Origin: Pythium myriotylum
Lineage: Eukaryota > Oomycota > Peronosporomycetes > Pythiales > Pythiaceae
Length of the DNA: 64,000 bases
Assembly: GCA_023091665.1 (NCBI GenBank)
Contig: JALJCQ010000012.1
Coordinates: 4,127,471 to 4,191,470 of the forward strand
Direction of reading: 5' to 3'
Shown here piece by piece: positions 23,645-64,000 of this stretch; positions within the stretch are counted from its first letter, which is position 1; the number at the start of each line of letters is the position of its first letter. Both the position numbers and the translations under genes were made by a program. The notes beneath the pieces are model-generated. The model was given only the letters and a program-made list of their open reading frames with translations, did not search any database and was not told where the DNA came from.

Positions 23645-24285
23645 AGAGAGAGAGAGAGAAATAGAAAGAGAGAATGGAGGTAGACAGGGCGTGCGTTCAG
23701 CAAACTAATCGCGTCACCGCCATGCTGTTCGAGTGGGAAGGATGTACGGACGTCGTCGTCATTCAAGTCACGTCACTCGTCCATCTGCTTCAATCTGGTC
23801 GGGCCCACTGGGTTCGTGGCTGGATGGCCCGGCTGAGATCCTAGAGACTCCAAGGAACTGGATAACGGAGACCCATGGAGGTCACTCGGAGGAGCGATGC
23901 AACGGATTACGGACGACAGAGGGCTACGTCGAGGGCTCCATCAGGAGACGCGGAAGCGAATCAGCACTGCGGGCGATTTGACACTTGAGTCATTCAACAA
24001 ATCCGTGGGATGCCAGGACCTGATTCACGGTCTCGAATGAGATATTCTATTTTGACGGGTATTAGTTGTCACGTTTTATATTAACTATCTTTGACAACCA
24101 TGTATAAGTTGAACTACCATTTACTGGATAACATGATTACTCAGGGTATCGCCGACATGCGTCACCGCCGGGGTAGAAAACAGATCGAACCCGGGCTCTC
24201 CCGGGGCTCTCCCCCGCCTTTCCCACGCCGAGTCCAGCGTGGTCACTCGCGGTCTCAGTTGCCAATCTTTCCGCTCGCTCGCGCC
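23645..24285. other. Intergenic with GA microsatellite
   Basis: A short (GA)n tract directly follows the helicase stop (23646-23660). The rest holds the promoter of the first FYVE-like gene. The open frame upstream of 24286 lacks similarity to the paralogues and I treat it as leader. Confidence 0.5.
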
Positions 24286-28979: not shown

Positions 28980-29168
28980 GCAGCACGTTGCACTTTCCTC
29001 GTGCGATTATGTCCCAATAAATGGTGATGGCGGTGTGTGCGATTCGCCTGCTGAGGTTCTTTTCTCGTGAAACTGTGCTGTACCTATGTAGTCAGAACAA
29101 CTCCCACAGGATTGCTAGTATGCACACAGCTTGAAGAAGTGCACGCTGGAAGAAATCAAAACACTTTA

Positions 29169-40558: not shown

Positions 40559-43500
40559 ATGTCGAACTTAGAAAAGTTGAAGTTCCCAGCGCTGGACATC
40601 GGTGGCAAGAACTACATCGTGTGGTCACTCGAGTGCTACAACAACATATGCGCCGAAGGCCTTAGCGACACGATTGATGAAAACTTCGTCATACCAAGCG
40701 GCACTACGACGAGGGAAGTTGCCACTCGCAAAGACGCTGCCCGCGCAGTGTGCCTGATCCTCCGGCACCTGCACAAAGACTTAAAGTTCAATTACCTTGA
40801 GGAACGCAACCCCGCTGTAATTTTGACAAGTCTGCGTCTTCGCTTCGACACCGATCGAAAGCAAGCAATGTTGCCACTCCTGAACGATGAATGGAACAAA
40901 CTCTGTTTCTACAACTTCAAGACAGTCACCGAGTACACGACAAAGTTGTACAGCATCGCGAGTGAGCTCTCGTGGTGTGGTAAGAAGTTGACGGAGTTGG
41001 ACAAGATCGACAAGACTCTCACGACGTTCAGTCCGGCGGAACGCATACTGGCTACACAGTATCGCCGCATGAACCATACGACCTTCGACAAGCTGGTGGC
41101 TACCCTATTGCTCGATGAGAAGCACGGCTTGTTGCTTCAGCGCAACCATGATGAGCGACGCGTCCCGGATGCGCCTGAGAAGCCGTTGAAGGCTGAAGTC
41201 AACTATGGGGAAGTTCCACGTCAACAGGACAAGCCTCATCAGCGCCGTCATGGCAAGAAGCAGTGGAAGGGCAATGGAAAGGGACGGAAGTTCTCATCAG
41301 GGAACAGGAAGCCTGGGGCACACAAGGCATTCTACAACTCGGATTCGAACAACGCATGCAGGAAGTGTGGTCTGAGAGGTCACTGGGCTGCGAAGTGTCC
41401 CACACCTGCGTTCCACGTCAAGCTTTACCAAGAGTCACTGCGAAACGCTAAGTCGTCTCAGACGATGAAGGGGAAGAGCAGAGGACCATCGTCTTCGAAG
41501 AATAAGGCCACGTTCATGACGAACTTGTCCGATGACAGTGACGAAGCTGAAGCGAACTGCGTTGAGTGCTACAGTAGTAATGAGAGCGAATATGACTCCT
41601 GTCTCATTGACTCAGGAACGACCAACGCTATCCTAAGGGATCGGAAGTTCTTTACGTCACTCGAGGCATCAGAAACACCCGCCAAAGTCAAGACAATTGG
41701 CGGTGCTGCGTCGATCGCTAAGGGTGCTGGACAAGCACAAGTCCAGTTGCCTAATGGAACTACGATCAACATCACCAAGGCAATCTTCGCACCATCCGCT
41801 TCTCGGAACTTGATCGGCTTTGCCGACATCCGAAAGAATGGATTGCGCGTCAACACAGCTACTCTCCCCGATGGCAGGGAGTGCTTGCGTTTGACTAATG
41901 CGAAAGGTCAGATCGTGGAGGAATGTGAGGAAAATGGCAACGGACTCTATGTCACTTTCATCACTCCATCGCCAGAATGTGCGGCTAGTGTCATCCACGA
42001 CACGATTGGCACATCTGCTCCTCGTTCAACCGAGACGAGCGTGTACGAGCAGTGGCACGATCGGTCAGGTCATCCAGGCAGGGACATGATGAAGCGAATG
42101 TCGAAGGCAGTTGTTGGCATGCCACTGAAGCAGAGCGACTTTGCCAACAACTGTGCATACCGTGTGCAATGGGAAAGCTTCAGAACCGCCCGAAGGTCAA
42201 GCTCCACGGCGAGAAGATCAAACCACGCGGTGTCCTCGACACTCTGGTGAGCGATGTGTGCGGCCCGATATCTCCACCATCAGGTCCCTTCAACTACTTC
42301 ATGGTTGTGAAAGACACATCGGCTCGGTTCTCGAAGGTTCAACTGCTAACTTCTCGAAACGAAGTGATGCCAAAGCTGCTAGCCAGCATCATTCACTTCA
42401 AGACGCAGTTCCCGGAGCACACAATCAAGAATGTTCCTGTCGACAACGCATCCGAGTACGTCTCGAAGTCATTTCAGGAGTTCTGCACGTCTAGCGGAAT
42501 AAACCTGGAGACTTCCGTACCATACGCTCACAACACGAATGCGGAGAACTTTGTGAATCAGATCCAGATGATCGCTCGGCCTTTGCTACTGCGATCGAAC
42601 CTGCCGCTATCTGCTTGGGGTCATGCAGTTCTTCATGCGGCAGCTCTCATCCAGTACAGGCCTGCTTCTGATGTTGGCCCTTCGCCATATGAACTTGTTC
42701 ATGGGTTTCCACCATCTGTAAAGCATCTGAGGATCTTTGGTTGTGCGGTATACGTCCCCATACCTCCACACCAACGAAGCAAGCTCGGACCCAGGCGCCA
42801 GCTTGGGGTATACGTAGGTTTCCAATCACCATCGATTATCCGTTACCTAAGTCCTCAAACAGGAGACCTATTTACGGCACACATCACCATGTGTGAATTC
42901 GATGAACAGACCTTCCCGAAACTTGGTGACGACGATGACGTCTCTAGATCGGCTTTCACATTCGAACAGCCGTCGACGAAGGAGATTCACAAGGACCCAT
43001 ACAACGGTCAAGGTGAGAAGGACGTACGACGCATCCTTCATCTGCACAGCATTGTACAGAATGCACCTGACGTATTCACTCCAACGGAACGGATGACACG
43101 GTCAACCCTCAATGAAGCATCCAACTATCCTGCCGCGATAGCAGTTGACCCCGTTCCTGCCTCGTCCACAACGACAACTCAACCGAAGAAGCGTGGACGA
43201 CCAAAAGGAGCAAAGGATAGAAATCGGAGGAAGAGGCGCACGAACGAAGAACTCGCTGGAGGCTCCATCGAACCAGAGGTTGTTGATGTTGAGCATGATG
43301 TCGATACCATTAGCGACGTTCTTGCTGACACGAACGTCAGCTCGTTCCTGGCCGCAATCGATGAAGATGCAGAGCCCCAGACAGTCTCGGACTGTAGGGC
43401 ATCACCCGATTTGCCTAAATGGAAGGGGGCCATCAAATCGGAGCTGCAGTCACTTGTCGATCGTGAAGTATTTGGAAACGTGCAAGAGTGCCCCCCACAG

Positions 43501-44989
43501 CACCGACCTATTGGATGTCGGTGGGTGTTTGCGCGTAAGCGCGATCAACAGGGTCGTGCGCTTCAAGGCGCGACTTGTGGCACAAGGTTTCACGCAACGT
43601 TTCGGTATCGACTATTCCGACACGTACTCGCCGGTCATGACCATGACAACCCTTCGTTGGTTACTTGCGTTCGGTGCAGCGAACAACATGCAAGTCAGGC
43701 AGGCAGACATAGAAACTGCGTACCTATATGGTCTAATCGATGTTGAACTATATATGCGAGTCCCTGAGGGGTTACGTGTCGAGGGGGAGAAGTCAATGAA
43801 CCTCCCGTGTGTGCAATTGCACAAGTCGCTTTATGGGTTGAAGCAAGCCGGCCGGCGTTGGTACTTGCGTTTTTCGCAGTACTTGATTAAATGTGGTTTT
43901 CAGACCCATGAATGCTCCCCATGCTTGTTCGTCAAGCGAAGCGGTGCCGAGATCGCCATCATTGGGATCTACGTCGACGACATCATCATTGTCGGAACGG
44001 ACGCGGCAATCGAAGCTGCAATGGCAGCATTGAAGTCCGAGTTCAAGGTGAAAGACCTTGGAACTATATCGTTCTGTCTAGGTCTCCAGGTATCTCAGAT
44101 CCCGACGGGGATTGTGTTGCATCAGGCAACCAACATCAGCAAAGTGCTGACACGCTTCAACATGAGGGATGTCACAAGGACTGCCGAGACCCCCATGGTT
44201 GTGCGGAACCTGAGACCAGAGAGCGATGTCTTTGGACCAAGACGTGGCAGTGAAAGGGTGCTCGACGAGAAGTATCCCTACAAGGAAGCCATCGGAGCTC
44301 TCCTTTACTTGGCAAACTGCTCACGCCCAGATATAGCTTTCGCTGTTAGTGTACTTGCACGGTACACATCGGAACCGACCAGAAGACATTGGTCTGGCGT
44401 AAAGCAAGTGTTGAGATATCTGGCACGGACTCGTAAGTACGGCTTACTGTACCGCAAGGGTACGAGCGTACACGTCAGTGATCTAGTCAAAGACGACATC
44501 TGCGGATACGCAGATGCAGGCTACCTCTCCGACCCACACAAGGCACGCTCGCAGACTGGCTACGTGTTCATGACTTCGCACGCTGCGATTTCGTGGAAGT
44601 CGACGAAGCAGACGCTAACTGCCACGTCAACCAACCAGTCAGAGCTTATCGCTCTTTATGAAGCGAGTCGTGAGTGCATCTGGTTGCGCCGATTCCTCAA
44701 GTTCGTTCGTGGCGCCCTTGGAGTCAAGACGAAGCTAGGACCTATCAGGATCTTCGAGGACAACGCGGCATGCGTTGCGCAAGTACAACAAGGCTACATC
44801 AAGAGTGATCGCACCAAACACATCGACCCAAAGTTCTTTTTCATGCATGACCTAAATGGAAAACAACTCGAGATCACTCAAGTCGCTTCGGAGAAGAACC
44901 TAGCTGACCTCTTCACCAAGTCCTTGGGGAGTAACAAGCACTGTGACTTGACGCGTGGGATCGGAATGATCGAGCTTCGTCTCGAGTAG
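40559..44989 (+). pseudogene. Copia-1 gag-pol, broken by two frameshifts
   Basis: Gag starts MSNLEKLKFPALDIGGKNY and has a CCHC knuckle (CRKCGLRGHWAAKC). Protease active site is CLIDSGTTNAI. The integrase zinc site begins EQWHDRSGHPG in the first frame, but its CIPCAMGK part is in the next frame, so a one-base shift lies near 42130-42160. The integrase core and RT start are in the second frame; at about 43550 another shift moves RT (ARLVAQGFTQRFGIDYSDTY, catalytic YVDDIIIVG) and RNase H (ISWKSTKQTLTATSTNQSEL) to the third frame, ending at 44989. Near-identical LTRs suggest recent insertion, so these shifts are recent or assembly errors. Confidence 0.9.
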
Positions 44990-50610: not shown

Positions 50611-53600
50611 TCAGTTACTCCCAAGGCATCTTACTCCCATTAGTTCCCTTAAATTTTCGAACTGATTTTGTGGTAACGCTTTTGTCAGTGCGTCTGCCAC
50701 CATGTCTTTTGTATCACAGTACCTAACCTCAATGCGTCCCTTCTCATATATCTCTCTCGAGTACATACTCCGAGTCTCGATATGTTTGGTCGAGGAGTGA
50801 TTGGCAGGATCTTTGACAATACTGATTGCAGCAGTATTATCACACCAGCATAAAATAGGCGCATTTTGCCTAAACCCTAGTTCCTCAAGTAGTTGCCACA
50901 TCCACTCACTCTCTTTTATGCCCTCACTTATGGCAATTAACTCAGACTGGGCAGTATGGAGGCTTACAGTGTTCTGTCTCGCGCTTTTCCATGACACACA
51001 TGCATCAGCGAGGATGGTTATGTAACCAGTAACTGACCGCCTTTCCTCATTAGCGTTCGCGAAGCTCGCATCTGTGTATAACTCGTATGTAACCTCCCTA
51101 TTGGTTCCATCATAGACGAGTCCATACGTCGATGTTCCTTTCAAGTACTTCAGTACTCGCTGTGCTGCCCGCCAATGGGACCTATTGTAGCACGACAGAA
51201 ACTTACTGAGCTCCCTTACTGCATTTGCGATATCTGGGCGTGTACCCCTAACAAGGTACATTAGCGAACCCACAAGACCTCTGTAATCAAACGGCTGAGC
51301 CCAATCTGATCTTTTGACATTTTCTCCTCTTTTACCAATTACACACTCTTTGCCTGTGGGGTCGGCTCAGTATTACAGTCTTCCATATTGAATTTCTTCA
51401 AAAGTTCCTGTACATACTGATGTTGGGAAAGACTCAATAATTTCCTCTGCCGATCCCGCTTTATTTCCATCTTTAAAAGATAATGGACCTCTCCTAAATC
51501 TTTCATTTTGAACCTTGATGAGAGTCGGGCCTTTACTTCCTGAATCAGAACCAGACTGGTCCCGGCGATTGTGAGATCATCCACGTACACGCAGATGATT
51601 ACGTGATGAGTGACTCCATTTACCTCCCACTTTTTACGGTACAAACAGTACTCCTTTTTGCACCGGAAAAACCCAATATTGGTTAGGAACTCATTCAACA
51701 CTCCATACCAAATCCGGGGTGCCTGTCTCAACCCATACAGACTTTTCCGCAGCAAGCGTACACGGTCCGTAATGCCGTCACTAAAGCCACGTGGTTGGCG
51801 CATGAAAATTTCAGTGTCCAGTTTCCCATTTAGAAATGCAGTGGACACATCCATTTGGTGGATGTGGAAGTCCTGGATTGTCGAGACAGCCAACAGTAAT
51901 CGTAGACTCTCATATCGAGCTACGGGAGAAAAGATTTCCTGATAATCCACTCCATACTGTTGGGTGTTCCCCTGGACAACCAGTCGAGCCTTGAAACGCT
52001 CAACTGCCCCATCTGCCTTATACTTTACATCGAACACCCAGTGACATCCAAGCGCTTTTCTACCCGGGGGTAGGGTGACCAGTTCCCATGTCTGATTTGC
52101 TCTGAGTGCCTGATACTCTTCAGCTACAGCTGCCTCCCACTGCTTGGTATATGTGCCTGACAGAGCCTCTTTTATGTACCTAGGGATTGGGATACCTGGT
52201 CTATTGGTCATCACGCTGTTTACGAACCGGATAAACCTCTGATACTGAGGGTTCGGTTTCCTAATCCGCTGGGAACGTGGTCGTAGCCGGGGTATCTCAC
52301 CCACCGACTCATCTCCCACTGCCCCCGTAGAGTCATCTTCTCCCACATTCTGAGCACTTTCAGTGTCTCCCATATTTTGAGCACTTTCTGTGTCTCCCAC
52401 TTCTTCGTTGGACTCTTCACCCGTCTTATGCCTCTTTTGGGTAGGGACATATGTCTCCTCCTCTGAGAGCTGTCTTTTGTAACTACCCAGACATGAGATC
52501 TCCTCGATTTCCTCAATACTTAGAGCAGGAGAATCTGAGGGAAAAGACTTTTCTATGAGCTTATCTGTGTCAGGTTGTCCAAATTTGACATCTCTAGCAA
52601 CCAGAATCTTCTTATTCTTGACATCATATAACCTATATCCTTTCTGATCATCTGAGAGACCCAATAACCTACATTCTAGACCGCGATTTCCCAGTTTTGG
52701 ATATGATCTTTTAGATTTTGGGATATGTGCGTAGCATATTATTCCCCATGGCTGCAGCATACTACCATCTGGTTTCATCTGATACAGTGCCTCAAATGGG
52801 CTCTTATTACCCAGACGGGCGGTAGTTAGCCGGTTTTCAACCGCTACAGCATAAAGAAGTGCCTCAGGCCACCACCTTGCTCCCATCTGAGCACCGAGTA
52901 ATTCACTCCTAACCTCTCTGAAGAGGGTTTGGTGTGCACGTTCTGCGCTCCCATTCTCTTCAGGTGACTCAACATTTGACCTTTGAAAGAGCATTCCCCT
53001 CTCTTTACAGATAGTTTCCAGAACTCTATTGGCAAATTCTGAACCTCCATCAGTCCTGATTCTCCGAACTTTGTATGGGAACTGGGCTTCCAGTTGCACC
53101 AATAAGTCCCGGATCCTATCCCTGACTTCTGTCATGCTTTTCAGCACAAAGTACCATTTGAAGCTGGTTGTATCATCAACCACACCTAGTGCATACCGGT
53201 ATCCTGATGAGAGATACAGGCCTTGTACCCTGATCTTTCCGGTTGTATCCATGTGTAAAGTGTGAAGTGGCTCCGTTGGTCGACTTCCGGTCATGCCCTT
53301 ATATGACATGCGCCTGGAGTTCGCCAGCTCGCATGTTCGACAGAACAGAGGAATGTCCTTTAACTCTTGATAAGGGAGTTGCGGGACATTTTCCATTGTC
53401 TGGCCACATAGTACTTGTAGTAGCCGCTCTTTTCCGGCATGGCTTAGTCTCAGATGCCATTCCTCGAGGAGGCGTATCTTATCCTGCCTTGTCACATGTG
53501 TCCTCAGGTCAGACCTTACCACCTGAATCTTCAGATTCTGGCGCAACCTTTCAGACGGTAGGTAATAAACTTGTCCTATGGCCACTGCAGCGAACAGTAA

Positions 53601-54554
53601 CTCATTTGTTCGGTTCAGAAAGAAGAGGAATTCACCACAGCTTGACTGGAGAAACCGATAGCCATGCTTAGCTAGATGGTAGGCACTAATGAGATTATTC
53701 CCACACTGTGGGTCATAATAGACATCAGACAAGTGCATGTAATGGAAATTTCCTTTTGTATTGTAGACACACAACCTAGCTACCCCTTTCATCCCGCTAG
53801 TTGATGTCCCTCCATTACCCTAGACAAATTTCTCTGTCTCTGCTCTCTCTAGTTCCGCGAACCAGCTCCTGTCACCACTTATGGCTCGACCTGCTCCTGT
53901 ATCCACAATCCATAGTGACCGTGTCAGTTTCAACGTCCTCAGCTTAGTCAAGTACGTAGCGTATCTTCTTCTTACCGTCATCTCGACGTCGTCGACGTTT
54001 CCTCCCACAGTTTCATGCTGGACTGAGCCAACGTAGTAACTGATCTCCGAGTTAACAGGTGGGCTTCCATCCTCAAACAGGATCCCGTCACATGCCGGAG
54101 AGGTCACCTGTGACGTGGCCGACTCTTGACTTGTACCCATCGGAACCGGTAGGGAAGCTTCCGGAACCGTTCCATTGGCCCCTTGTGCGTTGGCCACCGA
54201 TGCCACCAACCCAGCAAACTTGTTGTTCACCACGTTCAGGCCTGTCGGCCTTTTCTTCTTCATCTTCGCCTTGTATTCGCCCGGTTCCGTATTCTTCTTG
54301 GTACGGAAGAGCCCTTTGGCCCGATCTGCCGCACGATCCGGACAGTCCTTCTTCATGTGTCCCTCCAGGAAGCAATAGAAACATCCTCCGTCCACATCAG
54401 TGTCAGGAGCCTTACGTTTCTTCTGCACCTGCGGTTTCATCATGTTGACTGGGACAGTGTGCCGACGAGCATCAATGTCTTGTCGAGACCTGTCACCGAA
54501 AAGCGCGACTAGAGCAGCTTCAACCGCTTTAATGTTGTAGCTGTCCGCTTTCGG
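50611..54554 (-). pseudogene. Ty1/Copia retrotransposon 2 gag-pol, 5'-truncated and mutated
   Basis: Read on the minus strand. Gag remains only from about 54554 (NIKAVEAALVALFGDRS); the usual N-terminal gag domain and 5' LTR are gone. The CCHC knuckle is CFYCFLEGHMKKDC. The protease site WIVDTGAGRAISGD precedes an in-frame TAG at 53820-53822. Integrase (HLRLSHAGKERL, CRTCELA, then DD35E core), RT (ARLVVQGNTQQYGVDYQEIF, catalytic YVDDLTIAG) follow to a TAA at 51339. RNase H (SWKSARQNTVSLHTAQSELI) is in another frame, 50611-51273 and upstream, after a one-base shift near 51350. The truncation point lies next to telomeric repeats. Confidence 0.9.
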
Positions 54555-54608
54555 CTAGGGTTCAGACGAGTTTTCGATTAGCCTCATTTCTGGGACAGTG
54601 CGCGTCCC
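54555..54608. other. Junction between broken Copia-2 and the telomeric array
   Basis: Gag homology ends at CGGCTAGGGTTCAG, which contains a telomere-like TAGGGTT; 50 bp of unassigned sequence with an inverted TGGGAC/GTCCCA follows, then TTTAGGG repeats begin. Confidence 0.6.
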
Positions 54609-54633
54609 AGAGGGTTTAGGGTTTAGGGTTTAG
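54609..54633 (+). repeat. Interstitial telomeric repeats (block 1)
   Basis: About three TTTAGGG units, joined to the 3' terminus of PLE copy 0 (TTTAG/AGAGGCTTG). Confidence 0.9.
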
Positions 54634-54780
54634 AGAGGCTTGAAGTGACTTGCAAAGACTTGGTCAGGGAAACTACGACCCAAAGAGTTGCTCTATTACA
54701 GATGCAGGGGCTCTTTCGACTTGATGTCTTCGTCGGTGGGCGTCTTCGTGCTGAGTGGAAAATTGAAAACGGAGGAAGAC
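54634..54780 (-). mobile_element. Penelope-like element copy 0 (147-bp 3' stub)
   Basis: Only the last 147 bp of the element (in its own orientation), from AGAGGCTTGAAG to GGAGGAAGAC, then telomeric repeats. One visible difference from other copies (GAAAACGGAGG versus GAAAACTGAGG). Extreme 5' truncation. Confidence 0.9.
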
Positions 54781-54819
54781 CTAGGGTTTAGGGTTTAGGG
54801 TTTAGGGTTTAGGGTTTAG
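54781..54819 (+). repeat. Interstitial telomeric repeats (block 2)
   Basis: Five TTTAGGG units plus partial units, between copies 0 and 1. Confidence 0.95.
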
Positions 54820-55120
54820 AGAGGCTTGAAGTGACTTGCAAAGACTTGGTCAGGGAAACTACGACCCAAAGAGTTGCTCTATTACAGATGCAGGGGCTCT
54901 TTCGACTTGATGTCTTCGTCGGTGGGCGTCTTCGTGCTGAGTGGAAAATTGAAAACTGAGGAAGACCGCCGACCTCGCCCCCGGGTGCCTACGCTAAAGT
55001 CCTACGCTAGAGTCCTACGCTTCTGGGTTCTAGGGCTGGACAGGAACTTGAGTGTTCTGGGTCTGCGTGTCTGTGCTGCTGGGGTCTTGAGACACGTGAG
55101 AATATTCGACGTCCTGGGTT

Positions 55121-55182
55121 GAACATTCTCGAACATTCTCGGGAATATTCTCGAATGTTCGGTCGAACGTTCTCGAACCTTC
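55121..55182. promoter_or_regulatory. Heat-shock-element array in PLE 3' region (copy 1)
   Basis: Six GAAnnTTC units in three blocks: GAAcaTTCtcGAAcaTTC, GAAtaTTCtcGAAtgTTC, GAAcgTTCtcGAAccTTC, separated by 4 nt. Each block is four contiguous alternating nGAAn half-sites, an ideal heat shock factor site. Confidence 0.7.
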
Positions 55183-55220
55183 GACAAACTTTTCGACTGG
55201 GTTGGCCGAAATTTTCGTCT

Positions 55221-55260
55221 GGGTTTAGGGTTTAGGGTAGGGTTTGGGGTTGAGGGTCGG
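55221..55260 (+). repeat. Telomere-like block inside the PLE 3' UTR (copy 1)
   Basis: GGGTTTAGGGTTTAGGGTAG then diverged GGGTTTGGGGTTGAGGG. Present at the same place in copies 2 and 3, so part of the element. Confidence 0.85.
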
Positions 55261-55501
55261 GGATGGGTTGTAGACAGATAGTGCACGATCCGGGCGGCCA
55301 TTCTTGAATTTGCTCGCAATATGCCAAGCGTTCGCTGTTACCCTTTCGAGGGGGATCATCCCAAGCCAGCCGCTCCGTGAGCCTTCACTGCACGACCCCA
55401 TACTCTGTGGCATGGTTCCAAATGAGTGGGTAGCAGCAAGGCTAAACACGTTCTCGCGCGCTGGAAGGGCACGGTCATCCGTGTCCGGGGTGGTCCAGGC
55501 T

Positions 55502-57256
55502 TTAATGCATGGCATCTCCCGAGCTGTTCTTGAAGTGGTCGTCGTAGATGTTGGCCCTGAACTCTGATGGACAGAGTATGTCTCGGAGGTTCCGTGGACG
55601 GCGGTAGCACACAGTGATCTTGATGTTGTGGGCTGCGAACTCGTCTTCAATACGGTGGGCTTGATAGATAGCTCGTAGTTGTTTCCGAGTTGGGCCGTTC
55701 GGGTCATAAGGCACAGACAAGAAGACTTGCTTGGGCTTGCCGAGTTCCGTGGTTGGCCGCGTCGTCTGTTGTGCTTCTTCTTGTAGCTTGGCGATTCTTT
55801 CGATGGCGTCGCGGAAATGGTCTCTAAGCTGGTTAGAGTTGTATCCGCGAGCTGCCAGGCGCTGGAAGAAGGCTCTGACTTGAGACAGGAAATCTTCCTT
55901 CCTGGTGTTCTGGCGGTAATACTTCTGGACAATGCCGATGATGAGGCCTTTCAGAACGCCTGGAGGGTGTGCGCTTTGAGCCGCGATGTAGAGATAGAGA
56001 TTGAGCTCTTTCTCATGAGTTCGAGTCTCGTATCTCGTGTCGGATCGGCGGATTTTGAGGTCAAGAAACGGTGCTTCACGACCGCGTTCCATGTACGTCC
56101 AGCGAAGTCCTGGAATCGTGTTGAGGCGGATCTTGAAGAGTTCGAAAGCACGGGGATCTTTTCCGTCTTGCCAAATCAAAAACACGTCGTCGATGTAGCG
56201 CTTGTAGAGCACGATGTAGTTGCTGAACTCTCGAAGGATGCTTCGCTCGTGATACGCTACGTAGAGTGATGCGTACGTGGGGGCACATGGTGTTCCCATG
56301 GCGGTGCCCTTGATTTGCTTCCACACGCAGTCTCCGAACATGAACAAGTTCTCGTTCATGATGTAGTCGAGACCTTGGACGATCACATTCTCGAAGCGAT
56401 GCTTCTCTTCTTGGAGCATGGCTTTGATTGTTGCGATGCCGATGTTGGTGGGGATGTTGGTGTAGAGCGAGACGGCGTCAAATGTGAACAAACGATGCTT
56501 GGGGCTGGGCTGAATCTGTCGAAGTTCAGTCAGCAGCGTGTCGGAGTCTCGAAGGTACGATGGCTGTCGCTGGAGCATGTCTTGCAACTGGAAATCGATC
56601 CACTTCGAGAGACCGGCTGTCGGTGTTCCGCAGCTGGCAATGATAGGGCGAATGGCGAGATCCTCCTTGTGGAGCTTTATCAGGCCATAGAAGCGTCCTA
56701 ACTTGCACGAACTTGGATTACACTTGATGACAGCAACTTGTCGTTGGATGACTGGATCTTCACGGTACTGGTAGTTGAGTAGCATGTAGATCAGGTTCAC
56801 TTTGGCTGCGATCCGTTGGATCTGGGTCTCTGGTCCGTTGGGAAGACGATACAATGGCGTGTATGTCTCCTCGTCACTCAGGTGATCAAGACACATGGAA
56901 GTGTACTGTGATCGAAGCATGAGCGTCGGGCCGAGGTTCTTGTCTGCCTGCACGACCATCAAGTTCGGATCATTTCGTAGCAATCGTAGCAAGTTGCGTT
57001 GGTTGCTGTCGAGGTTGAACTTGTGTCGGAAGGGATACTGTGCAATGAGTTCGGTCGCGTGTGACTTGATCGACTCCAGTAAATCTTCTTGATGGCGTGG
57101 CAGGTGGTTTGGCTGGAAAGCAAGGTTTGGAACGTAGATCTTCGAGTTGTAGTCGCGGTCGCTGGAGTCAGCAAACTGGACTGCAATTCGAAGAGACCGG
57201 ACGAGTTTGGGGAAGATGGTAACTGGCGAGAGGGAAGAGCGTTGCGGCGGAGGTGT
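55502..57256 (-). pseudogene. PLE reverse transcriptase, N-terminally truncated (copy 1)
   Basis: The frame is open from the telomeric junction to the stop at 55502 and, as far as I compared, identical to the C-terminal part of the RT in copies 2 and 3. RT motifs present: FTFDAVSLYTNIP, GTAMGTPCAPTYASLYVAYH, YIDDVFLIW. No start is left; the N-terminal region and ORF1 are missing. Confidence 0.9.
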
Positions 57257-57281
57257 TTAGGGTTTAGGGTTTAGGGTTTAG
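57255..57281 (+). repeat. Interstitial telomeric repeats (block 3)
   Basis: About 3.5 TTTAGGG units between copy 1's broken 5' end and copy 2's 3' end. Confidence 0.95.
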
Positions 57282-57582
57282 AGAGGCTTGAAGTGACTTG
57301 CAAAGACTTGGTCAGGGAAACTACGACCCAAAGAGTTGCTCTATTACAGATGCAGGGGCTCTTTCGACTTGATGTCTTCGTCGGTGGGCGTCTTCGTGCT
57401 GAGTGGAAAATTGAAAACTGAGGAAGACCGCCGACCTCGCCCCCGGGTGCCTACGCTAAAGTCCTACGCTAGAGTCCTACGCTTCTGGGTTCTAGGGCTG
57501 GACAGGAACTTGAGTGTTCTGGGTCTGCGTGTCTGTGCTGCTGGGGTCTTGAGACACGTGAGAATATTCGACGTCCTGGGTT

Positions 57583-57644
57583 GAACATTCTCGAACATTC
57601 TCGGGAATATTCTCGAATGTTCGGTCGAACGTTCTCGAACCTTC
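57583..57644. promoter_or_regulatory. Heat-shock-element array (copy 2)
   Basis: Same twelve half-sites as in copy 1. It lies about 330-390 nt upstream (in element orientation) of the 5' end of copy 1. Confidence 0.7.
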
Positions 57645-57683
57645 GACAAACTTTTCGACTGGGTTGGCCGAAATTTTCGTCTG

Positions 57684-57722
57684 GGTTTAGGGTTTAGGGT
57701 AGGGTTTGGGGTTGAGGGTCGG
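57684..57722 (+). repeat. Telomere-like block inside the PLE 3' UTR (copy 2)
   Basis: Same sequence and place as in copy 1, between the HSE array and the RT stop. Confidence 0.85.
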
Positions 57723-57963
57723 GGATGGGTTGTAGACAGATAGTGCACGATCCGGGCGGCCATTCTTGAATTTGCTCGCAATATGCCAAGCGTTCGCTGT
57801 TACCCTTTCGAGGGGGATCATCCCAAGCCAGCCGCTCCGTGAGCCTTCACTGCACGACCCCATACTCTGTGGCATGGTTCCAAATGAGTGGGTAGCAGCA
57901 AGGCTAAACACGTTCTCGCGCGCTGGAAGGGCACGGTCATCCGTGTCCGGGGTGGTCCAGGCT

Positions 57964-59856
57964 TTAATGCATGGCATCTCCCGAGCTGTTCTTGAAGTGG
58001 TCGTCGTAGATGTTGGCCCTGAACTCTGATGGACAGAGTATGTCTCGGAGGTTCCGTGGACGGCGGTAGCACACAGTGATCTTGATGTTGTGGGCTGCGA
58101 ACTCGTCTTCAATACGGTGGGCTTGATAGATAGCTCGTAGTTGTTTCCGAGTTGGGCCGTTCGGGTCATAAGGCACAGACAAGAAGACTTGCTTGGGCTT
58201 GCCGAGTTCCGTGGTTGGCCGCGTCGTCTGTTGTGCTTCTTCTTGTAGCTTGGCGATTCTTTCGATGGCGTCGCGGAAATGGTCTCTAAGCTGGTTAGAG
58301 TTGTATCCGCGAGCTGCCAGGCGCTGGAAGAAGGCTCTGACTTGAGACAGGAAATCTTCCTTCCTGGTGTTCTGGCGGTAATACTTCTGGACAATGCCGA
58401 TGATGAGGCCTTTCAGAACGCCTGGAGGGTGTGCGCTTTGAGCCGCGATGTAGAGATAGAGATTGAGCTCTTTCTCATGAGTTCGAGTCTCGTATCTCGT
58501 GTCGGATCGGCGGATTTTGAGGTCAAGAAACGGTGCTTCACGACCGCGTTCCATGTACGTCCAGCGAAGTCCTGGAATCGTGTTGAGGCGGATCTTGAAG
58601 AGTTCGAAAGCACGGGGATCTTTTCCGTCTTGCCAAATCAAAAACACGTCGTCGATGTAGCGCTTGTAGAGCACGATGTAGTTGCTGAACTCTCGAAGGA
58701 TGCTTCGCTCGTGATACGCTACGTAGAGTGATGCGTACGTGGGGGCACATGGTGTTCCCATGGCGGTGCCCTTGATTTGCTTCCACACGCAGTCTCCGAA
58801 CATGAACAAGTTCTCGTTCATGATGTAGTCGAGACCTTGGACGATCACATTCTCGAAGCGATGCTTCTCTTCTTGGAGCATGGCTTTGATTGTTGCGATG
58901 CCGATGTTGGTGGGGATGTTGGTGTAGAGCGAGACGGCGTCAAATGTGAACAAACGATGCTTGGGGCTGGGCTGAATCTGTCGAAGTTCAGTCAGCAGCG
59001 TGTCGGAGTCTCGAAGGTACGATGGCTGTCGCTGGAGCATGTCTTGCAACTGGAAATCGATCCACTTCGAGAGACCGGCTGTCGGTGTTCCGCAGCTGGC
59101 AATGATAGGGCGAATGGCGAGATCCTCCTTGTGGAGCTTTATCAGGCCATAGAAGCGTCCTAACTTGCACGAACTTGGATTACACTTGATGACAGCAACT
59201 TGTCGTTGGATGACTGGATCTTCACGGTACTGGTAGTTGAGTAGCATGTAGATCAGGTTCACTTTGGCTGCGATCCGTTGGATCTGGGTCTCTGGTCCGT
59301 TGGGAAGACGATACAATGGCGTGTATGTCTCCTCGTCACTCAGGTGATCAAGACACATGGAAGTGTACTGTGATCGAAGCATGAGCGTCGGGCCGAGGTT
59401 CTTGTCTGCCTGCACGACCATCAAGTTCGGATCATTTCGTAGCAATCGTAGCAAGTTGCGTTGGTTGCTGTCGAGGTTGAACTTGTGTCGGAAGGGATAC
59501 TGTGCAATGAGTTCGGTCGCGTGTGACTTGATCGACTCCAGTAAATCTTCTTGATGGCGTGGCAGGTGGTTTGGCTGGAAAGCAAGGTTTGGAACGTAGA
59601 TCTTCGAGTTGTAGTCGCGGTCGCTGGAGTCAGCAAACTGGACTGCAATTCGAAGAGACCGGACGAGTTTGGGGAAGATGGTAACTGGCGAGAGGGAAGA
59701 GCGTTGCGGCGGAGGTGTCGGGCAGAACTTGAGGTTCAGACCCAGGAGTCTCTTCAGACCTGGTGGAATCTTGGTGCCACGTGGTGTGAGATTGTGGAAC
59801 GCGAGATTGCGAGGCAATGCGTCCACATCACAAGCCCTACGACAGCCGAAGATCAA
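57964..59856 (-). CDS. PLE reverse transcriptase, endonuclease-deficient (copy 2)
   Basis: Copies element RNA into DNA. The frame gives 630 aa if counted from a TTG at 59856, but no ATG is available and the frame is open back to 60159, overlapping ORF1 by 271 nt in the -1 phase. Expression by -1 frameshifting from ORF1 is therefore likely (site at 60078-60084), giving about 944 aa. Visible motifs: LGRFYGLIKLHKEDLAIRPI, motif A FTFDAVSLYTNIP (near residue 305), GTAMGTPCAPTYASLYVAYH, catalytic YIDDVFLIW (near 400), and PLE-type C-terminal RRPRNLRDIL. The GIY-YIG endonuclease is absent, as in telomere-associated PLEs known from rotifers, fungi and other eukaryotes. The overlap-frame peptide is very basic (AKRKQKEKEQRRRQ), suited to RNA binding. 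Confidence 0.93.
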   Translation of the reverse strand: MIFGCRRACDVDALPRNLAFHNLTPRGTKIPPGLKRLLGLNLKFCPTPPPQRSSLSPVTIFPKLVRSLRIAVQFADSSDRDYNSKIYVPNLAFQPNHLPRHQEDLLESIKSHATELIAQYPFRHKFNLDSNQRNLLRLLRNDPNLMVVQADKNLGPTLMLRSQYTSMCLDHLSDEETYTPLYRLPNGPETQIQRIAAKVNLIYMLLNYQYREDPVIQRQVAVIKCNPSSCKLGRFYGLIKLHKEDLAIRPIIASCGTPTAGLSKWIDFQLQDMLQRQPSYLRDSDTLLTELRQIQPSPKHRLFTFDAVSLYTNIPTNIGIATIKAMLQEEKHRFENVIVQGLDYIMNENLFMFGDCVWKQIKGTAMGTPCAPTYASLYVAYHERSILREFSNYIVLYKRYIDDVFLIWQDGKDPRAFELFKIRLNTIPGLRWTYMERGREAPFLDLKIRRSDTRYETRTHEKELNLYLYIAAQSAHPPGVLKGLIIGIVQKYYRQNTRKEDFLSQVRAFFQRLAARGYNSNQLRDHFRDAIERIAKLQEEAQQTTRPTTELGKPKQVFLSVPYDPNGPTRKQLRAIYQAHRIEDEFAAHNIKITVCYRRPRNLRDILCPSEFRANIYDDHFKNSSGDAMH

Positions 59857-59888
59857 ACTGGCGTTGAAGAGATCCGAGCGGTCGCGTC

Positions 59889-60797
59889 TTATGATCGCGC
59901 GGTTTTGGCGCCGCGCGGCGGTTTGTCGGCGGCGTTGCTCCTTTTCCTTTTGCTTGCGCTTCGCGTGTTGCCGTTTCTTCCGCTGTTTGAGGCGGAAGTT
60001 CCCTTTGCGGCGTCGGCCTTTGGTGCAGGGTGCTTCTTGTTCTTGCTGACGGTCGCACCCTTCGCGCCAGCTCTGGCGTTTTTTCGTTCCTGTTGCTTTG
60101 GAACCTTCCGGTCGATACGGAGCTGTCGTAGTTCGTTCTTGATCGATTGTAGCTTGCGATCAATCAACACGTTCACGAGATCCTGGTTTGGAGTTTCCAC
60201 CTCCATGTCGGCAGCCGCGGCTTGCTTGGCTTGCTTGTCGACGAGTCGGATGCTCGCATCAGCTTGGCTGTATCGTTCCGCAAGCTCAAACTGGGTCAGG
60301 CGAGCTTCGAACTCGTCCTTGGCATGGTGGTAGATGTCGACATATGCGTTCTCGTCTCGATCTTCTTCTTCCATGGCATCCCAGTTGATAGTGTCATACT
60401 TGCCGTTCGGGTCGGCTTTGCATGCGAGCTTGCAGTACTCAAGTGCTCGATCTTGGAAATCGTCTCGGAGCTTCTGAACTTGGAGCTCAAGTTGTTCGAG
60501 TTCGGCTTTCTGTACGCTGAGGATGAGATCGAAGGCTTGGTGCTGAAACTGTAGCTTCAGAGCATCGAATTGATTCATCAGCGTGAGCACTCGAGTTGGA
60601 AGGGCCGTCTGGAGTTCGTTGGAGACAACAAGCTTGGCCTGTACTCGCAGGGATCTGGGTACTTCTTGGCGTTCGCGTTGTTGTTGCATCTTGCGGAGGC
60701 TCTCTTGCTTCGCGCTGAGCTTCCGGTGCAGCTTCTTATAGCGCTCCAGATACTCCAGGGTGGTCTTCATCAGTGGGCGCGGCAGACTACGATCCAT
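59889..60797 (-). CDS. PLE ORF1: coiled-coil protein with basic tail (copy 2)
   Basis: 302 aa from ATG at 60797 (MDRSLPRPLMKTTLEYLERY) to TAA at 59889. Heptad-rich helices at about 10-130 (QKAELEQLELQVQKLRDDF) and 160-230; the last 70 residues are Lys/Arg/Ala-rich (GAKGATVSKNKKHPAPKAD). It resembles structural nucleic-acid-binding ORF1 proteins of retroelements: multimerisation through coils, RNA binding through the tail. No zinc knuckle. The stop lies 32 nt before the TTG of the RT frame; ribosomes that shift at codons 238-240 bypass it. Only this copy is complete. Confidence 0.85.
   Translation of the reverse strand: MDRSLPRPLMKTTLEYLERYKKLHRKLSAKQESLRKMQQQRERQEVPRSLRVQAKLVVSNELQTALPTRVLTLMNQFDALKLQFQHQAFDLILSVQKAELEQLELQVQKLRDDFQDRALEYCKLACKADPNGKYDTINWDAMEEEDRDENAYVDIYHHAKDEFEARLTQFELAERYSQADASIRLVDKQAKQAAAADMEVETPNQDLVNVLIDRKLQSIKNELRQLRIDRKVPKQQERKNARAGAKGATVSKNKKHPAPKADAAKGTSASNSGRNGNTRSASKRKRSNAADKPPRGAKTARS
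60078..60084 (-). promoter_or_regulatory. -1 ribosomal frameshift site A AAA AAC (copy 2)
   Basis: On the minus strand ORF1 reads CGA AAA AAC GCC; the heptamer is in the X XXY YYZ register required for -1 slippage. After slipping, the next codon is CGC in the RT frame, which stays open to 57964. The heptamer is followed directly by the palindrome GCCAGAGCUGGC, and by a GCGC/GUGC stem about 10 nt on, as possible stimulators. Confidence 0.72.
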
Positions 60798-60847
60798 GGC
60801 GATGATGGAGAGTCTTTCCTTAATTGCTTCGTCACGCGGGGCTTGGT

Positions 60848-60858
60848 CTAGGGTTTAG
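60848..60858 (+). repeat. Interstitial telomeric repeat (block 4, short)
   Basis: CTAGGGTTTAG, about 1.5 units, between copy 2's 5' end and copy 3's 3' end. Confidence 0.85.
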
Positions 60859-61159
60859 AGAGGCTTGAAGTGACTTGCAAAGACTTGGTCAGGGAAACTA
60901 CGACCCAAAGAGTTGCTCTATTACAGATGCAGGGGCTCTTTCGACTTGATGTCTTCGTCGGTGGGCGTCTTCGTGCTGAGTGGAAAATTGAAAACTGAGG
61001 AAGACCGCCGACCTCGCCCCCGGGTGCCTACGCTAAAGTCCTACGCTAGAGTCCTACGCTTCTGGGTTCTAGGGCTGGACAGGAACTTGAGTGTTCTGGG
61101 TCTGCGTGTCTGTGCTGCTGGGGTCTTGAGACACGTGAGAATATTCGACGTCCTGGGTT

Positions 61160-61221
61160 GAACATTCTCGAACATTCTCGGGAATATTCTCGAATGTTCG
61201 GTCGAACGTTCTCGAACCTTC
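61160..61221. promoter_or_regulatory. Heat-shock-element array (copy 3), placed upstream of copy 2 ORF1
   Basis: Same array; in the minus-strand direction it lies about 310-370 nt before the 5' end of copy 2 and about 360-420 nt before its ORF1 ATG, a promoter-like distance. Confidence 0.7.
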
Positions 61222-61259
61222 GACAAACTTTTCGACTGGGTTGGCCGAAATTTTCGTCT

Positions 61260-61299
61260 GGGTTTAGGGTTTAGGGTAGGGTTTGGGGTTGAGGGTCGG
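61260..61299 (+). repeat. Telomere-like block inside the PLE 3' UTR (copy 3)
   Basis: Same sequence and place as in copies 1 and 2. Confidence 0.85.
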
Positions 61300-61540
61300 G
61301 GATGGGTTGTAGACAGATAGTGCACGATCCGGGCGGCCATTCTTGAATTTGCTCGCAATATGCCAAGCGTTCGCTGTTACCCTTTCGAGGGGGATCATCC
61401 CAAGCCAGCCGCTCCGTGAGCCTTCACTGCACGACCCCATACTCTGTGGCATGGTTCCAAATGAGTGGGTAGCAGCAAGGCTAAACACGTTCTCGCGCGC
61501 TGGAAGGGCACGGTCATCCGTGTCCGGGGTGGTCCAGGCT

Positions 61541-63433
61541 TTAATGCATGGCATCTCCCGAGCTGTTCTTGAAGTGGTCGTCGTAGATGTTGGCCCTGAA
61601 CTCTGATGGACAGAGTATGTCTCGGAGGTTCCGTGGACGGCGGTAGCACACAGTGATCTTGATGTTGTGGGCTGCGAACTCGTCTTCAATACGGTGGGCT
61701 TGATAGATAGCTCGTAGTTGTTTCCGAGTTGGGCCGTTCGGGTCATAAGGCACAGACAAGAAGACTTGCTTGGGCTTGCCGAGTTCCGTGGTTGGCCGCG
61801 TCGTCTGTTGTGCTTCTTCTTGTAGCTTGGCGATTCTTTCGATGGCGTCGCGGAAATGGTCTCTAAGCTGGTTAGAGTTGTATCCGCGAGCTGCCAGGCG
61901 CTGGAAGAAGGCTCTGACTTGAGACAGGAAATCTTCCTTCCTGGTGTTCTGGCGGTAATACTTCTGGACAATGCCGATGATGAGGCCTTTCAGAACGCCT
62001 GGAGGGTGTGCGCTTTGAGCCGCGATGTAGAGATAGAGATTGAGCTCTTTCTCATGAGTTCGAGTCTCGTATCTCGTGTCGGATCGGCGGATTTTGAGGT
62101 CAAGAAACGGTGCTTCACGACCGCGTTCCATGTACGTCCAGCGAAGTCCTGGAATCGTGTTGAGGCGGATCTTGAAGAGTTCGAAAGCACGGGGATCTTT
62201 TCCGTCTTGCCAAATCAAAAACACGTCGTCGATGTAGCGCTTGTAGAGCACGATGTAGTTGCTGAACTCTCGAAGGATGCTTCGCTCGTGATACGCTACG
62301 TAGAGTGATGCGTACGTGGGGGCACATGGTGTTCCCATGGCGGTGCCCTTGATTTGCTTCCACACGCAGTCTCCGAACATGAACAAGTTCTCGTTCATGA
62401 TGTAGTCGAGACCTTGGACGATCACATTCTCGAAGCGATGCTTCTCTTCTTGGAGCATGGCTTTGATTGTTGCGATGCCGATGTTGGTGGGGATGTTGGT
62501 GTAGAGCGAGACGGCGTCAAATGTGAACAAACGATGCTTGGGGCTGGGCTGAATCTGTCGAAGTTCAGTCAGCAGCGTGTCGGAGTCTCGAAGGTACGAT
62601 GGCTGTCGCTGGAGCATGTCTTGCAACTGGAAATCGATCCACTTCGAGAGACCGGCTGTCGGTGTTCCGCAGCTGGCAATGATAGGGCGAATGGCGAGAT
62701 CCTCCTTGTGGAGCTTTATCAGGCCATAGAAGCGTCCTAACTTGCACGAACTTGGATTACACTTGATGACAGCAACTTGTCGTTGGATGACTGGATCTTC
62801 ACGGTACTGGTAGTTGAGTAGCATGTAGATCAGGTTCACTTTGGCTGCGATCCGTTGGATCTGGGTCTCTGGTCCGTTGGGAAGACGATACAATGGCGTG
62901 TATGTCTCCTCGTCACTCAGGTGATCAAGACACATGGAAGTGTACTGTGATCGAAGCATGAGCGTCGGGCCGAGGTTCTTGTCTGCCTGCACGACCATCA
63001 AGTTCGGATCATTTCGTAGCAATCGTAGCAAGTTGCGTTGGTTGCTGTCGAGGTTGAACTTGTGTCGGAAGGGATACTGTGCAATGAGTTCGGTCGCGTG
63101 TGACTTGATCGACTCCAGTAAATCTTCTTGATGGCGTGGCAGGTGGTTTGGCTGGAAAGCAAGGTTTGGAACGTAGATCTTCGAGTTGTAGTCGCGGTCG
63201 CTGGAGTCAGCAAACTGGACTGCAATTCGAAGAGACCGGACGAGTTTGGGGAAGATGGTAACTGGCGAGAGGGAAGAGCGTTGCGGCGGAGGTGTCGGGC
63301 AGAACTTGAGGTTCAGACCCAGGAGTCTCTTCAGACCTGGTGGAATCTTGGTGCCACGTGGTGTGAGATTGTGGAACGCGAGATTGCGAGGCAATGCGTC
63401 CACATCACAAGCCCTACGACAGCCGAAGATCAA
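61541..63433 (-). CDS. PLE reverse transcriptase (copy 3)
   Basis: 630-aa frame, as translated identical to copy 2; frame open upstream to the truncation. Complete RT motifs including YIDDVFLIW. Because ORF1's start is missing, normal frameshift expression is not possible from this copy. Confidence 0.9.
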   Translation of the reverse strand: MIFGCRRACDVDALPRNLAFHNLTPRGTKIPPGLKRLLGLNLKFCPTPPPQRSSLSPVTIFPKLVRSLRIAVQFADSSDRDYNSKIYVPNLAFQPNHLPRHQEDLLESIKSHATELIAQYPFRHKFNLDSNQRNLLRLLRNDPNLMVVQADKNLGPTLMLRSQYTSMCLDHLSDEETYTPLYRLPNGPETQIQRIAAKVNLIYMLLNYQYREDPVIQRQVAVIKCNPSSCKLGRFYGLIKLHKEDLAIRPIIASCGTPTAGLSKWIDFQLQDMLQRQPSYLRDSDTLLTELRQIQPSPKHRLFTFDAVSLYTNIPTNIGIATIKAMLQEEKHRFENVIVQGLDYIMNENLFMFGDCVWKQIKGTAMGTPCAPTYASLYVAYHERSILREFSNYIVLYKRYIDDVFLIWQDGKDPRAFELFKIRLNTIPGLRWTYMERGREAPFLDLKIRRSDTRYETRTHEKELNLYLYIAAQSAHPPGVLKGLIIGIVQKYYRQNTRKEDFLSQVRAFFQRLAARGYNSNQLRDHFRDAIERIAKLQEEAQQTTRPTTELGKPKQVFLSVPYDPNGPTRKQLRAIYQAHRIEDEFAAHNIKITVCYRRPRNLRDILCPSEFRANIYDDHFKNSSGDAMH

Positions 63434-63465
63434 ACTGGCGTTGAAGAGATCCGAGCGGTCGCGTC

Positions 63466-63717
63466 TTATGATCGCGCGGTTTTGGCGCCGCGCGGCGGTT
63501 TGTCGGCGGCGTTGCTCCTTTTCCTTTTGCTTGCGCTTCGCGTGTTGCCGTTTCTTCCGCTGTTTGAGGCGGAAGTTCCCTTTGCGGCGTCGGCCTTTGG
63601 TGCAGGGTGCTTCTTGTTCTTGCTGACGGTCGCACCCTTCGCGCCAGCTCTGGCGTTTTTTCGTTCCTGTTGCTTTGGAACCTTCCGGTCGATACGGAGC
63701 TGTCGTAGTTCGTTCTT
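63466..63717 (-). pseudogene. PLE ORF1, C-terminal remnant (copy 3)
   Basis: Only the basic C-terminal part of ORF1 remains (from about QLRIDRKVPKQQ to the stop at 63466), including the slippery heptamer at 63655-63661. The rest was lost at the telomere junction. Confidence 0.9.
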
Positions 63718-64000
63718 GGGTTTAGGGTTTAGGGTTTAGGGTTTAGGGTTTAGGGTTTAGGGTTTAGGGTTTAGGGTTTAGGGTTTAGGGTTTAGGGTTT
63801 AGGGTTTAGGGTTTAGGGTTTAGGGTTTAGGGTTTAGGGTTTAGGGTTTAGGGTTTAGGGTTTAGGGTTTAGGGTTTAGGGTTTAGGGTTTAGGGTTTAG
63901 GGTTTAGGGTTTAGGGTTTAGGGTTTAGGGTTTAGGGTTTAGGGTTTAGGGTTTAGGGTTTAGGGTTTAGGGTTTAGGGTTTAGGGTTTAGGGTTTAGGA
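63718..64000 (+). repeat. Terminal telomere, (TTTAGGG)n
   Basis: About 40 perfect TTTAGGG units to the window edge. The G-rich strand runs 5' to 3' outward, the correct polarity for a chromosome end. Confidence 0.97.

What the first reader, a model, noticed from the sequence alone, without database searches (positions are those of the whole stretch)
54609..64000. Telomere extended by repeated end-attachment of an endonuclease-less Penelope-like element
Four copies lie head to tail, all on the minus strand, each joined at its 3' terminus to TTTAG at the same base (AGAGGCTTG), and each ending at a different 5' point (in the 3' UTR stub, RT, leader, ORF1) directly followed by new TTTAGGG. Fixed 3' ends, variable 5' ends and telomeric repeats at every junction are what results if the RT uses the telomere's 3' overhang as primer and telomerase caps the product. 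The RNA 3' end (CTCTAAA) could pair with the G-rich overhang. EN-deficient PLEs at telomeres are known in rotifers, fungi and other groups; a tandem array interleaved with telomeric repeats resembles Drosophila HeT-A in logic.
Basis: partly seen in the sequence, partly recalled or inferred. Interest (0 to 1): 0.9.

Follow-up and report, generated by a model that had tools for sequence, protein, structure and literature searches.

The report
Telomere-attaching retroelement in a water mould
In a Pythium-like water mould, copies of a retroelement with no recognisable endonuclease are stacked among telomere repeats at contig ends, facing one way and joined to the repeat at the same base in 236 of 237 cases, most likely because the element's enzyme copies its RNA straight onto the chromosome tip and telomerase then caps the product; the mechanism is known from rotifers, but this case records it unusually clearly.

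Summary
Four minus-strand copies lie at 54634-63718, all starting at TTTAG|AGAGGCTTG; three are cut at different 5' points and run into TTTAGGG, the third is full length. In the same 58.7-Mb genome the 3'-end 20-mer occurs 237 times, 236 with TTTAG in front. All 76 telomere-joined ends and 89 of 90 RT-motif sites lie within 47 kb of a contig end, pointing outward, at 25 contig ends. The RT is telomerase-like in predicted fold and has no GIY-YIG match. The last cDNA base sets the register of the TTTAGGG that follows, as expected if telomerase (TERT domain present) caps it. Very short stubs are in excess, as expected from RT drop-off. Full-length units in 3,577-bp arrays with one 10-nt linker (157 of 157), a compound unit and a 133-bp minisatellite point to recombination as well. 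End-attachment by endonuclease-less Penelope-like elements is established (PMC3846280, PMC6431247); this is a new oomycete member with exceptionally clean junctions.

The parts
54612..54633 (+). telomeric tract (3 repeats, ends TTTAG) at the boundary between subtelomere and array
   Evidence: read directly; matched pattern
54634..54781 (-). copy 1: 148-nt 3' stub, 5'-truncated in the 3' UTR
   Evidence: one substitution against the other copies
54782..54819 (+). 38-nt telomeric spacer
54820..57256 (-). copy 2: 2,437 nt, 5'-truncated inside the RT frame
57257..57281 (+). 25-nt telomeric spacer
57282..60848 (-). copy 3: full-length element, 3,567 nt
   Evidence: unit plus linker repeats at 3,577-bp spacing at other contig ends
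57683..57704 (+). telomere-like repeats inside the element's 3' UTR (also in copies 2 and 4)
57964..60159 (-). ORF2 open frame (731 codons plus stop): RT, no GIY-YIG match; first ATG only at codon 247
59889..60797 (-). ORF1, 302 aa, predicted long helices and basic tail (low-confidence model); overlaps the ORF2 open frame
   Evidence: relative P0121 70% identical over the whole length
60078..60084 (-). AAAAAAC heptamer in ORF1 frame inside the ORF1/ORF2 overlap; candidate -1 frameshift site (predicted; the heptamer alone is not significant)
60849..60858 (+). 10-nt linker TAGGGTTTAG between full-length copy 3 and copy 4
   Evidence: 157 of 157 exact full-length 5' ends genome-wide, by equal counts
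60859..63718 (-). copy 4: 2,860 nt, 5'-truncated in ORF1
63719..64000 (+). terminal TTTAGGG tract, about 280 nt, at the contig end
   Evidence: (window ends at contig end 4191470)

Best explanation
This is a two-ORF Penelope-like retroelement with no recognisable endonuclease whose listed copies lie at contig ends among TTTAGGG repeats of a Pythium-like oomycete, and its RT likely copies the RNA onto the telomere's own 3' overhang, after which telomerase likely caps the unfinished cDNA. Shown: one outward orientation, one 3' junction register (GGGTTTAG|AGAGGC), scattered 5' ends, a 3'-biased excess of short stubs, and telomeric restarts whose register depends on the last cDNA base. Inferred: the RNA 3' end (...GCCUCU followed by CUAAACCC) pairs with the G-rich overhang and so sets the register; the RT often falls off early (hot spot at 48-50 nt); telomerase restarts at a default TAGGG when nothing pairs. 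A second, recombinational process (break-induced or unequal exchange, or rolling circle) is inferred to have multiplied full-length units into 3,577-bp arrays with a constant 10-nt telomeric linker. The RT is predicted to be made as an ORF1-RT fusion by -1 frameshifting.
Against: No RNA, enzyme or overhang data exist here; the RNA 3' end and pairing are inferred. The 3' register could also arise if telomerase always leaves ...TTTAG-3' and the RT simply uses that end. Truncation by end erosion, rather than RT drop-off, cannot be excluded for long copies; breakpoints after linker-joined copies look uniform (10 copies). Of 39 truncations, 5 have an imperfect first repeat and 1 is an internal chimera. 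One of 237 3' ends lacks TTTAG (on C4). One contig start with a telomere, C14, has no copy. Two of 7 telomere-spaced pairs show no difference, and the linker-joined C11 pair differs at 4 sites, so the haplotype contrast is not clean. By sequence profile the RT hit group II-intron-like RTs in the PDB, not TERT; the telomerase likeness rests on the fold, and the lowest telomerase row ties with a spliceosomal chain. Five of seven relatives fetched show no run of two or more telomere units. The slippery heptamer is expected by chance in so A-rich a region (P 0.48).
Confidence: 0.86

Rival explanations
1. The arrays arose mainly by recombination: one old telomere-embedded copy was spread and trimmed by break-induced replication, erosion and telomerase healing, with little or no recent retrotransposition.
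For: Same linker in 157 of 157 exact full-length 5' ends, compound 6,280-bp repeat on C13 and 133-bp minisatellite on C30, near-identical copies inside arrays, an internal-telomere chimera at C3.
Against: 36 distinct breakpoints with a strong excess of stubs under 60 nt, short stubs only after telomere tracts (13 of 29 against 0 of 10, P 0.008), and different SNP haplotypes in 5 of 7 telomere-spaced pairs. Erosion of an array predicts uniform breakpoints.
Confidence: 0.2
2. The constant 3' junction reflects telomerase alone: its template always leaves ...GGGTTTAG-3', and the RT extends that end without base pairing between RNA tail and overhang.
For: The linker TAGGGTTTAG equals one full copy of a putative CUAAACCCUA template, and cDNA ending in C restarts at TAGGG, so TTTAG may be the template's natural stop.
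Against: Needs a near-perfectly uniform overhang end (236 of 237); pairing gives the same register for free, and reverse-complement telomeric tails are described for rotifer Terminons (PMC6431247, passages read).
Confidence: 0.35
3. A telomere-targeted non-LTR (LINE-type) element like SART/TRAS, MoTeR or HeT-A.
For: Same genomic logic: telomeric arrays, 5' truncation, telomerase healing (PMC7367193 and PMC10088271, passages read).
Against: Highest fold matches are telomerases; DKNLGP and the catalytic DD are invariant with 44 relatives (that these are PLE-type motifs is recalled); no other nuclease domain was matched in ORF2 by Pfam at E up to 1.
Confidence: 0.03
4. Assembly artefact.
For: Some contig ends look poor (homopolymer at C6 start); tandem copies are near-identical.
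Against: The same junctions recur at 25 contig ends, and those read show different breakpoints, spacers and SNPs.
Confidence: 0.02

Closest known systems
Endonuclease-deficient telomeric Penelope-like elements: Athena/Terminons of bdelloid rotifers
   Different: Oomycete host with TTTAGGG; compact 3.6-kb unit (4-6 kb typical, up to 40 kb in Terminons); no hammerhead ribozyme found, whereas Terminons carry one next to the 3' telomeric repeats; ORF1 and RT overlap in the -1 frame; full-length ends only in linker-joined tandems.
Fungal and protist EN-deficient PLEs (Coprina and others)
   Same: Same class and niche according to PMC3846280 (passages read); Coprina is named from recall of Gladyshev and Arkhipova 2007, which is not held.
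MoTeR telomeric retrotransposons of Magnaporthe
   Same: Arrays separated by interstitial telomere tracts, truncation plus healing, and identical spacers explained by D-loop amplification (PMC7367193, passages read).
   Different: LINE class (PMC10088271, passages read), not a PLE; different repeats.
Drosophila HeT-A/TART
   Same: Retroelement added to the chromosome end; one orientation and variable 5' truncation are recalled.
   Different: Non-LTR class in a telomerase exception (PMC5537684, start of abstract in the listing); here a TERT domain and terminal TTTAGGG tracts are present.

Membership tests
Penelope-like elements (PLE) | RT closest to telomerase RT | tested here: met
Penelope-like elements (PLE) | Tandem or partial-tandem arrangement (pseudo-LTR) | tested here: met
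   3,577-bp periods at several contig ends; tandems also in relatives L043 and L047, possibly L045
Penelope-like elements (PLE) | Hammerhead ribozyme near the tandem junction (common, not universal) | tested here: not met
   No hammerhead family at E up to 5 in 54500-64000; CUGANGA cores only inside ORFs. A divergent ribozyme is not excluded.
EN-deficient telomeric PLE | No GIY-YIG endonuclease in the RT ORF | tested here: met
   No PF01541 at E up to 1 in the 731-codon frame; relative L047 has it at 2.4e-6 in the same scan
EN-deficient telomeric PLE | Confined to chromosome ends in one orientation | tested here: met
   76 of 76 telomere-joined 3' ends, 89 of 90 RT-motif sites; mutated internal copies could escape exact patterns
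EN-deficient telomeric PLE | 3' end joined to G-rich telomeric repeat, 5' truncation followed by telomeric repeats | tested here: met
   61 of 61 3' junctions read; 39 truncations
EN-deficient telomeric PLE | Priming on the chromosome 3' overhang | not testable with these tools
   Needs biochemistry; only junction sequence is available
Athena or Coprina clade | Monophyly with named members | not tested
   Reference sequences not available; founding papers not held
HeT-A-like non-LTR telomere element | Non-LTR RT and host without telomerase | tested here: not met
   TERT RNA-binding domain found; highest fold matches telomerase

The most novel reading that the evidence does not exclude
The element carries its own telomerase-like template. 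Unit-length RNAs end in CUAAACCCUA, a sequence a TTTAGGG telomerase could use as template. This tail aligns the RNA on the overhang, and when the RT runs off a full-length RNA and jumps to the tail of the next one it writes exactly one template's worth of telomere, TAGGGTTTAG, so that a single enzyme stitches RNA copies and telomeric linkers into the chromosome end. This would explain why 157 of 157 exact full-length 5' ends bear this 10-nt linker and none a longer telomere tract, and why the C11 pair joined by it has two different SNP haplotypes.
Probability: 0.2. Interest if true: 0.8.

Novelty: new member of a known kind. Interest (0 to 1): 0.5.

Why it matters
The genome is a natural assay of how an endonuclease-less, telomerase-related RT uses the chromosome tip: 39 readable truncations at 36 positions, with start, stop and healing points. 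The healing register would read out the start of the oomycete telomerase template. Because telomerase and this RT act on the same ends, the system bears on how telomerase could have come from such elements, and it might be tested in a culturable oomycete. Subtelomeric amplification by the same arrays also bears on how fast chromosome ends change in this group.

Tried and rejected
Rejected: LINE-type element (fold); assembly artefact (recurrence with different breakpoints); random end-joining of telomere fragments at the 5' ends (register depends on the last base, permutation 0 of 5,000). A hammerhead ribozyme at the junction was sought and not found. The AAAAAAC heptamer as sole proof of frameshifting was rejected, because codon shuffles give one about as often as not (P 0.48) and the downstream fold is unremarkable (z -0.75). 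Better, but still indirect, support is that ORF2 is in the -1 frame of ORF1 in 7 of 7 PLE loci examined (the window and L043-L048; L049 not examined). In 4 of 7 (window, L043, L045, L047) no ATG precedes the conserved core; L046 and L048 do have one; L044's core was not located; L048 has no such heptamer. L047 has an endonuclease, so the arrangement is not special to EN-less elements; of the seven relatives only L043 and L047 were scanned for domains. Purifying selection from SNPs among copies is weak: 10 synonymous, 12 nonsynonymous, 1 stop. PDB sequence search with the single protein found nothing at E up to 1; the profile found group II-intron-like and other RTs plus unrelated proteins, no TERT. 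The ORF1 model is of low confidence (mean pLDDT 63) and was not searched. A viral-contig scan gave no relative. In one search the last-base letters printed for unphased rows were wrong (a script slip); redid the table. Papers: PMC3846280, PMC6431247, PMC7367193, PMC10088271, PMC11139960, PMC7658794, PMC7046594 and PMC4700185 were seen as passages only; PMC11167929 as abstract and part 1 of its main text; PMC5537684 as a listing. Gladyshev and Arkhipova 2007, Arkhipova 2017 and Craig 2021 are not held and are recalled. Whether an oomycete telomeric PLE is in print was looked for only in the searches, in one open-licence library, and only titles and abstract starts of the listed papers were seen; subscription papers, including the 2007 one, may describe one.
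Full report
WHAT WAS CHECKED. The window is the right end of contig C12 (4127471-4191470) of a 58.7-Mb, 55-contig genome. Four copies of one element, all on the minus strand, occupy 54634-54781, 54820-57256, 57282-60848 and 60859-63718, and the contig ends in about 280 nt of TTTAGGG. All four 3' ends are TTTAG|AGAGGCTTGAAG. Copies 1, 2 and 4 are 5'-truncated at different points and run into TTTAGGG. Copy 3 is full length and is followed by only TAGGGTTTAG before copy 4.

HOST. A helicase-like gene in the window is 79% identical to [Pythium] brassicae and 72% to Pythium insidiosum (residues 240-740), so the host is an oomycete of Pythium in the wide sense and probably neither of these species. 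TTTAGGG is the repeat used to find oomycete telomeres (PMC11139960, passages read). One match to the TERT RNA-binding domain, over its curated cut-off (47.6 bits), lies on C12.

PLACEMENT. The 3'-end 20-mer occurs 237 times; 236 have TTTAG in front. 76 are joined to at least GGGTTTAGGGTTTAG; all 76 were listed and lie within 46.3 kb of a contig end, in one orientation relative to it. A degenerate RT motif (TAYATHGAYGAYGTNTT) occurs 90 times, all listed; 89 are terminal and outward, and one, with different codons, lies 2.38 Mb inside C30 and was not followed up. Together 25 contig ends carry the element. Old internal copies that no longer match these exact patterns would be missed. Of 13 contig ends with a telomere tract that I read, 12 carry it; C14 start does not.

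JUNCTIONS. I annotated 61 copies in 22 stretches, the window included (L001, L002 and L009 were left out because they overlap others, and the C30 minisatellite L031 was left out). All 61 have GGGTTTAG before the 3' end. Twelve are full length, and all 12 are followed by TAGGGTTTAG; 10 run off the stretch; 39 show a 5' truncation at 36 distinct positions. Eight of 39 are shorter than 60 nt (0.66 expected if uniform) and 18 of 39 shorter than 300 nt (3.3 expected). Positions 48-50 recur at five different contig ends, a likely RT stop. In 33 of 39 the following telomere is cleanly phased; 5 have an irregular first repeat and 1 is an internal chimera. The register follows the last cDNA base: C then TAGGG 6 of 6; T then AGGG 8 of 12; A then GGG 4 of 6; G then GG or G plus TTTAG 8 of 9. 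Microhomology averages 1.33 nt against 0.72 in simulated random junctions (P 0.001), and permuting phases never reached it in 5,000 trials. This is the pattern expected if telomerase aligns each cDNA end on its template and, when it cannot, starts at a default TAGGG. That step is inferred.

TWO PROCESSES. Short stubs (under 160 nt) occur in 13 of 29 truncations that sit on a telomere tract but in 0 of 10 that sit on a linker-joined full-length copy (P 0.008; the cut-off was chosen after seeing the data). Telomere-spaced neighbours differ at 19 sites in 13.6 kb (5 of 7 pairs of at least 700 bp differ), linker-spaced neighbours at 6 in 21.3 kb (3 of 9 pairs differ). The first class looks like attachments drawn from a genome-wide RNA pool with frequent early RT drop-off; the second like local amplification of arrays whose ends erode evenly. 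Array amplification is clearest on C13, where spacings of 2,703 and 3,577 bp alternate three times, and on C30, where 48 of 48 units read are an identical 133-bp fusion of the 3' 49 nt and 5' 74 nt plus the linker. In Magnaporthe, identical interstitial telomere spacers were likewise taken as the mark of D-loop amplification rather than sequential transposition (PMC7367193, passages read).

THE TEN-BASE LINKER. The exact 16-mer of the full-length 5' end occurs 157 times, and 5' end plus linker plus new 3' end also occurs 157 times (32 plus 125 in both). About 94 of these would be the C30 minisatellite (inferred from its spacing; 100 of 157 places were listed). So no exact full-length end is followed by a longer telomere tract. 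Either one ancestral dimer spread by recombination, or the linker is templated each time. The C11 pair, whose two copies differ at four sites, shows that at least one linker does not come from simple recent duplication. The linker is exactly one copy of a putative CUAAACCCUA template, which is the basis of the novel case.

RELATIVES. Seven PLE-bearing contigs from bacterial records, probably eukaryotic sequence, were fetched. L043 and L047 contain long head-to-tail tandems, and L045 has matching contig ends. Telomere-like runs of two or more units were seen in two of seven: L047, which has an endonuclease, starts in CCCTAA repeats on its 5' side, and L044 has CCCTAAA repeats after the RT; the other five show none. 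In the window and six of the seven (L043-L048), ORF2 lies in the -1 frame of ORF1 (7 of 7 examined), which makes -1 frameshifting a plausible family trait; the heptamer in our element is not significant by itself.

COMPARISON AND NOVELTY. [quoted passage not shown] PMC6431247 (passages) adds that rotifer Terminons bear reverse-complement telomeric repeats next to a hammerhead motif and form tandem or interspersed arrays. The mechanism is therefore known, and this is a new member in an oomycete. What is uncommon, in my judgement, is the clarity: fixed start, readable stops, a telomerase-restart rule, and a strict linker. In one open library no title or abstract start in the listings names an oomycete telomeric PLE; the founding paper is not held.

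Noticed in passing
window 57964-59856 against P0001; window 16985-23644 against P0125/P0126: The RT is 91% identical, over 57% of its length, to a Pythium insidiosum fragment (on a 1,472-bp contig) while a helicase-like host gene is only 72% identical to that species. This could mean horizontal transfer, strong constraint or contamination.
   Followed up: partly
C30 start (L031): A 133-bp minisatellite made of the element's 3' 49 nt, 5' 74 nt and the 10-nt linker; 48 of 48 units read are identical.
   Followed up: partly
C13, 22.4-43.6 kb; C17, 3447591-3448661: Compound repeats: spacings of 2,703 and 3,577 bp alternating three times on C13 (only part read), and four intervals of 259 bp between telomere-joined 3' ends on C17 (not read).
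   Followed up: partly
L013 (C3 start), distal copies: Copies that look recombined through the telomere-like repeats inside the 3' UTR, giving an enlarged internal telomere tract.
   Followed up: no
L043-L049: PLE contigs in records named as bacteria (Binatia, Poribacteria, Deltaproteobacteria and others), probably eukaryotic contamination; two hold long tandem PLE units.
   Followed up: partly
L024 (C14 start): A telomere set directly on unrelated subtelomeric sequence, with no 3' end of the element in the first 10 kb.
   Followed up: no
G000:C30:2381648-2381664: A single internal match to the RT catalytic codon pattern with different codons; chance or a distant RT.
   Followed up: no
window 851-3884: A 229-bp tandem repeat of 13 copies, 94% matches.
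   Followed up: no
window 24091-30743: Three related genes of one family (shared MKFPL..ERPFD start, cysteine-rich stretch; judged by eye) in a cluster.
   Followed up: no
window 40559-44989 and 51339-53792: Two copia-like polyprotein regions (judged by eye from the ORF translations), the first split over several frames.
   Followed up: no
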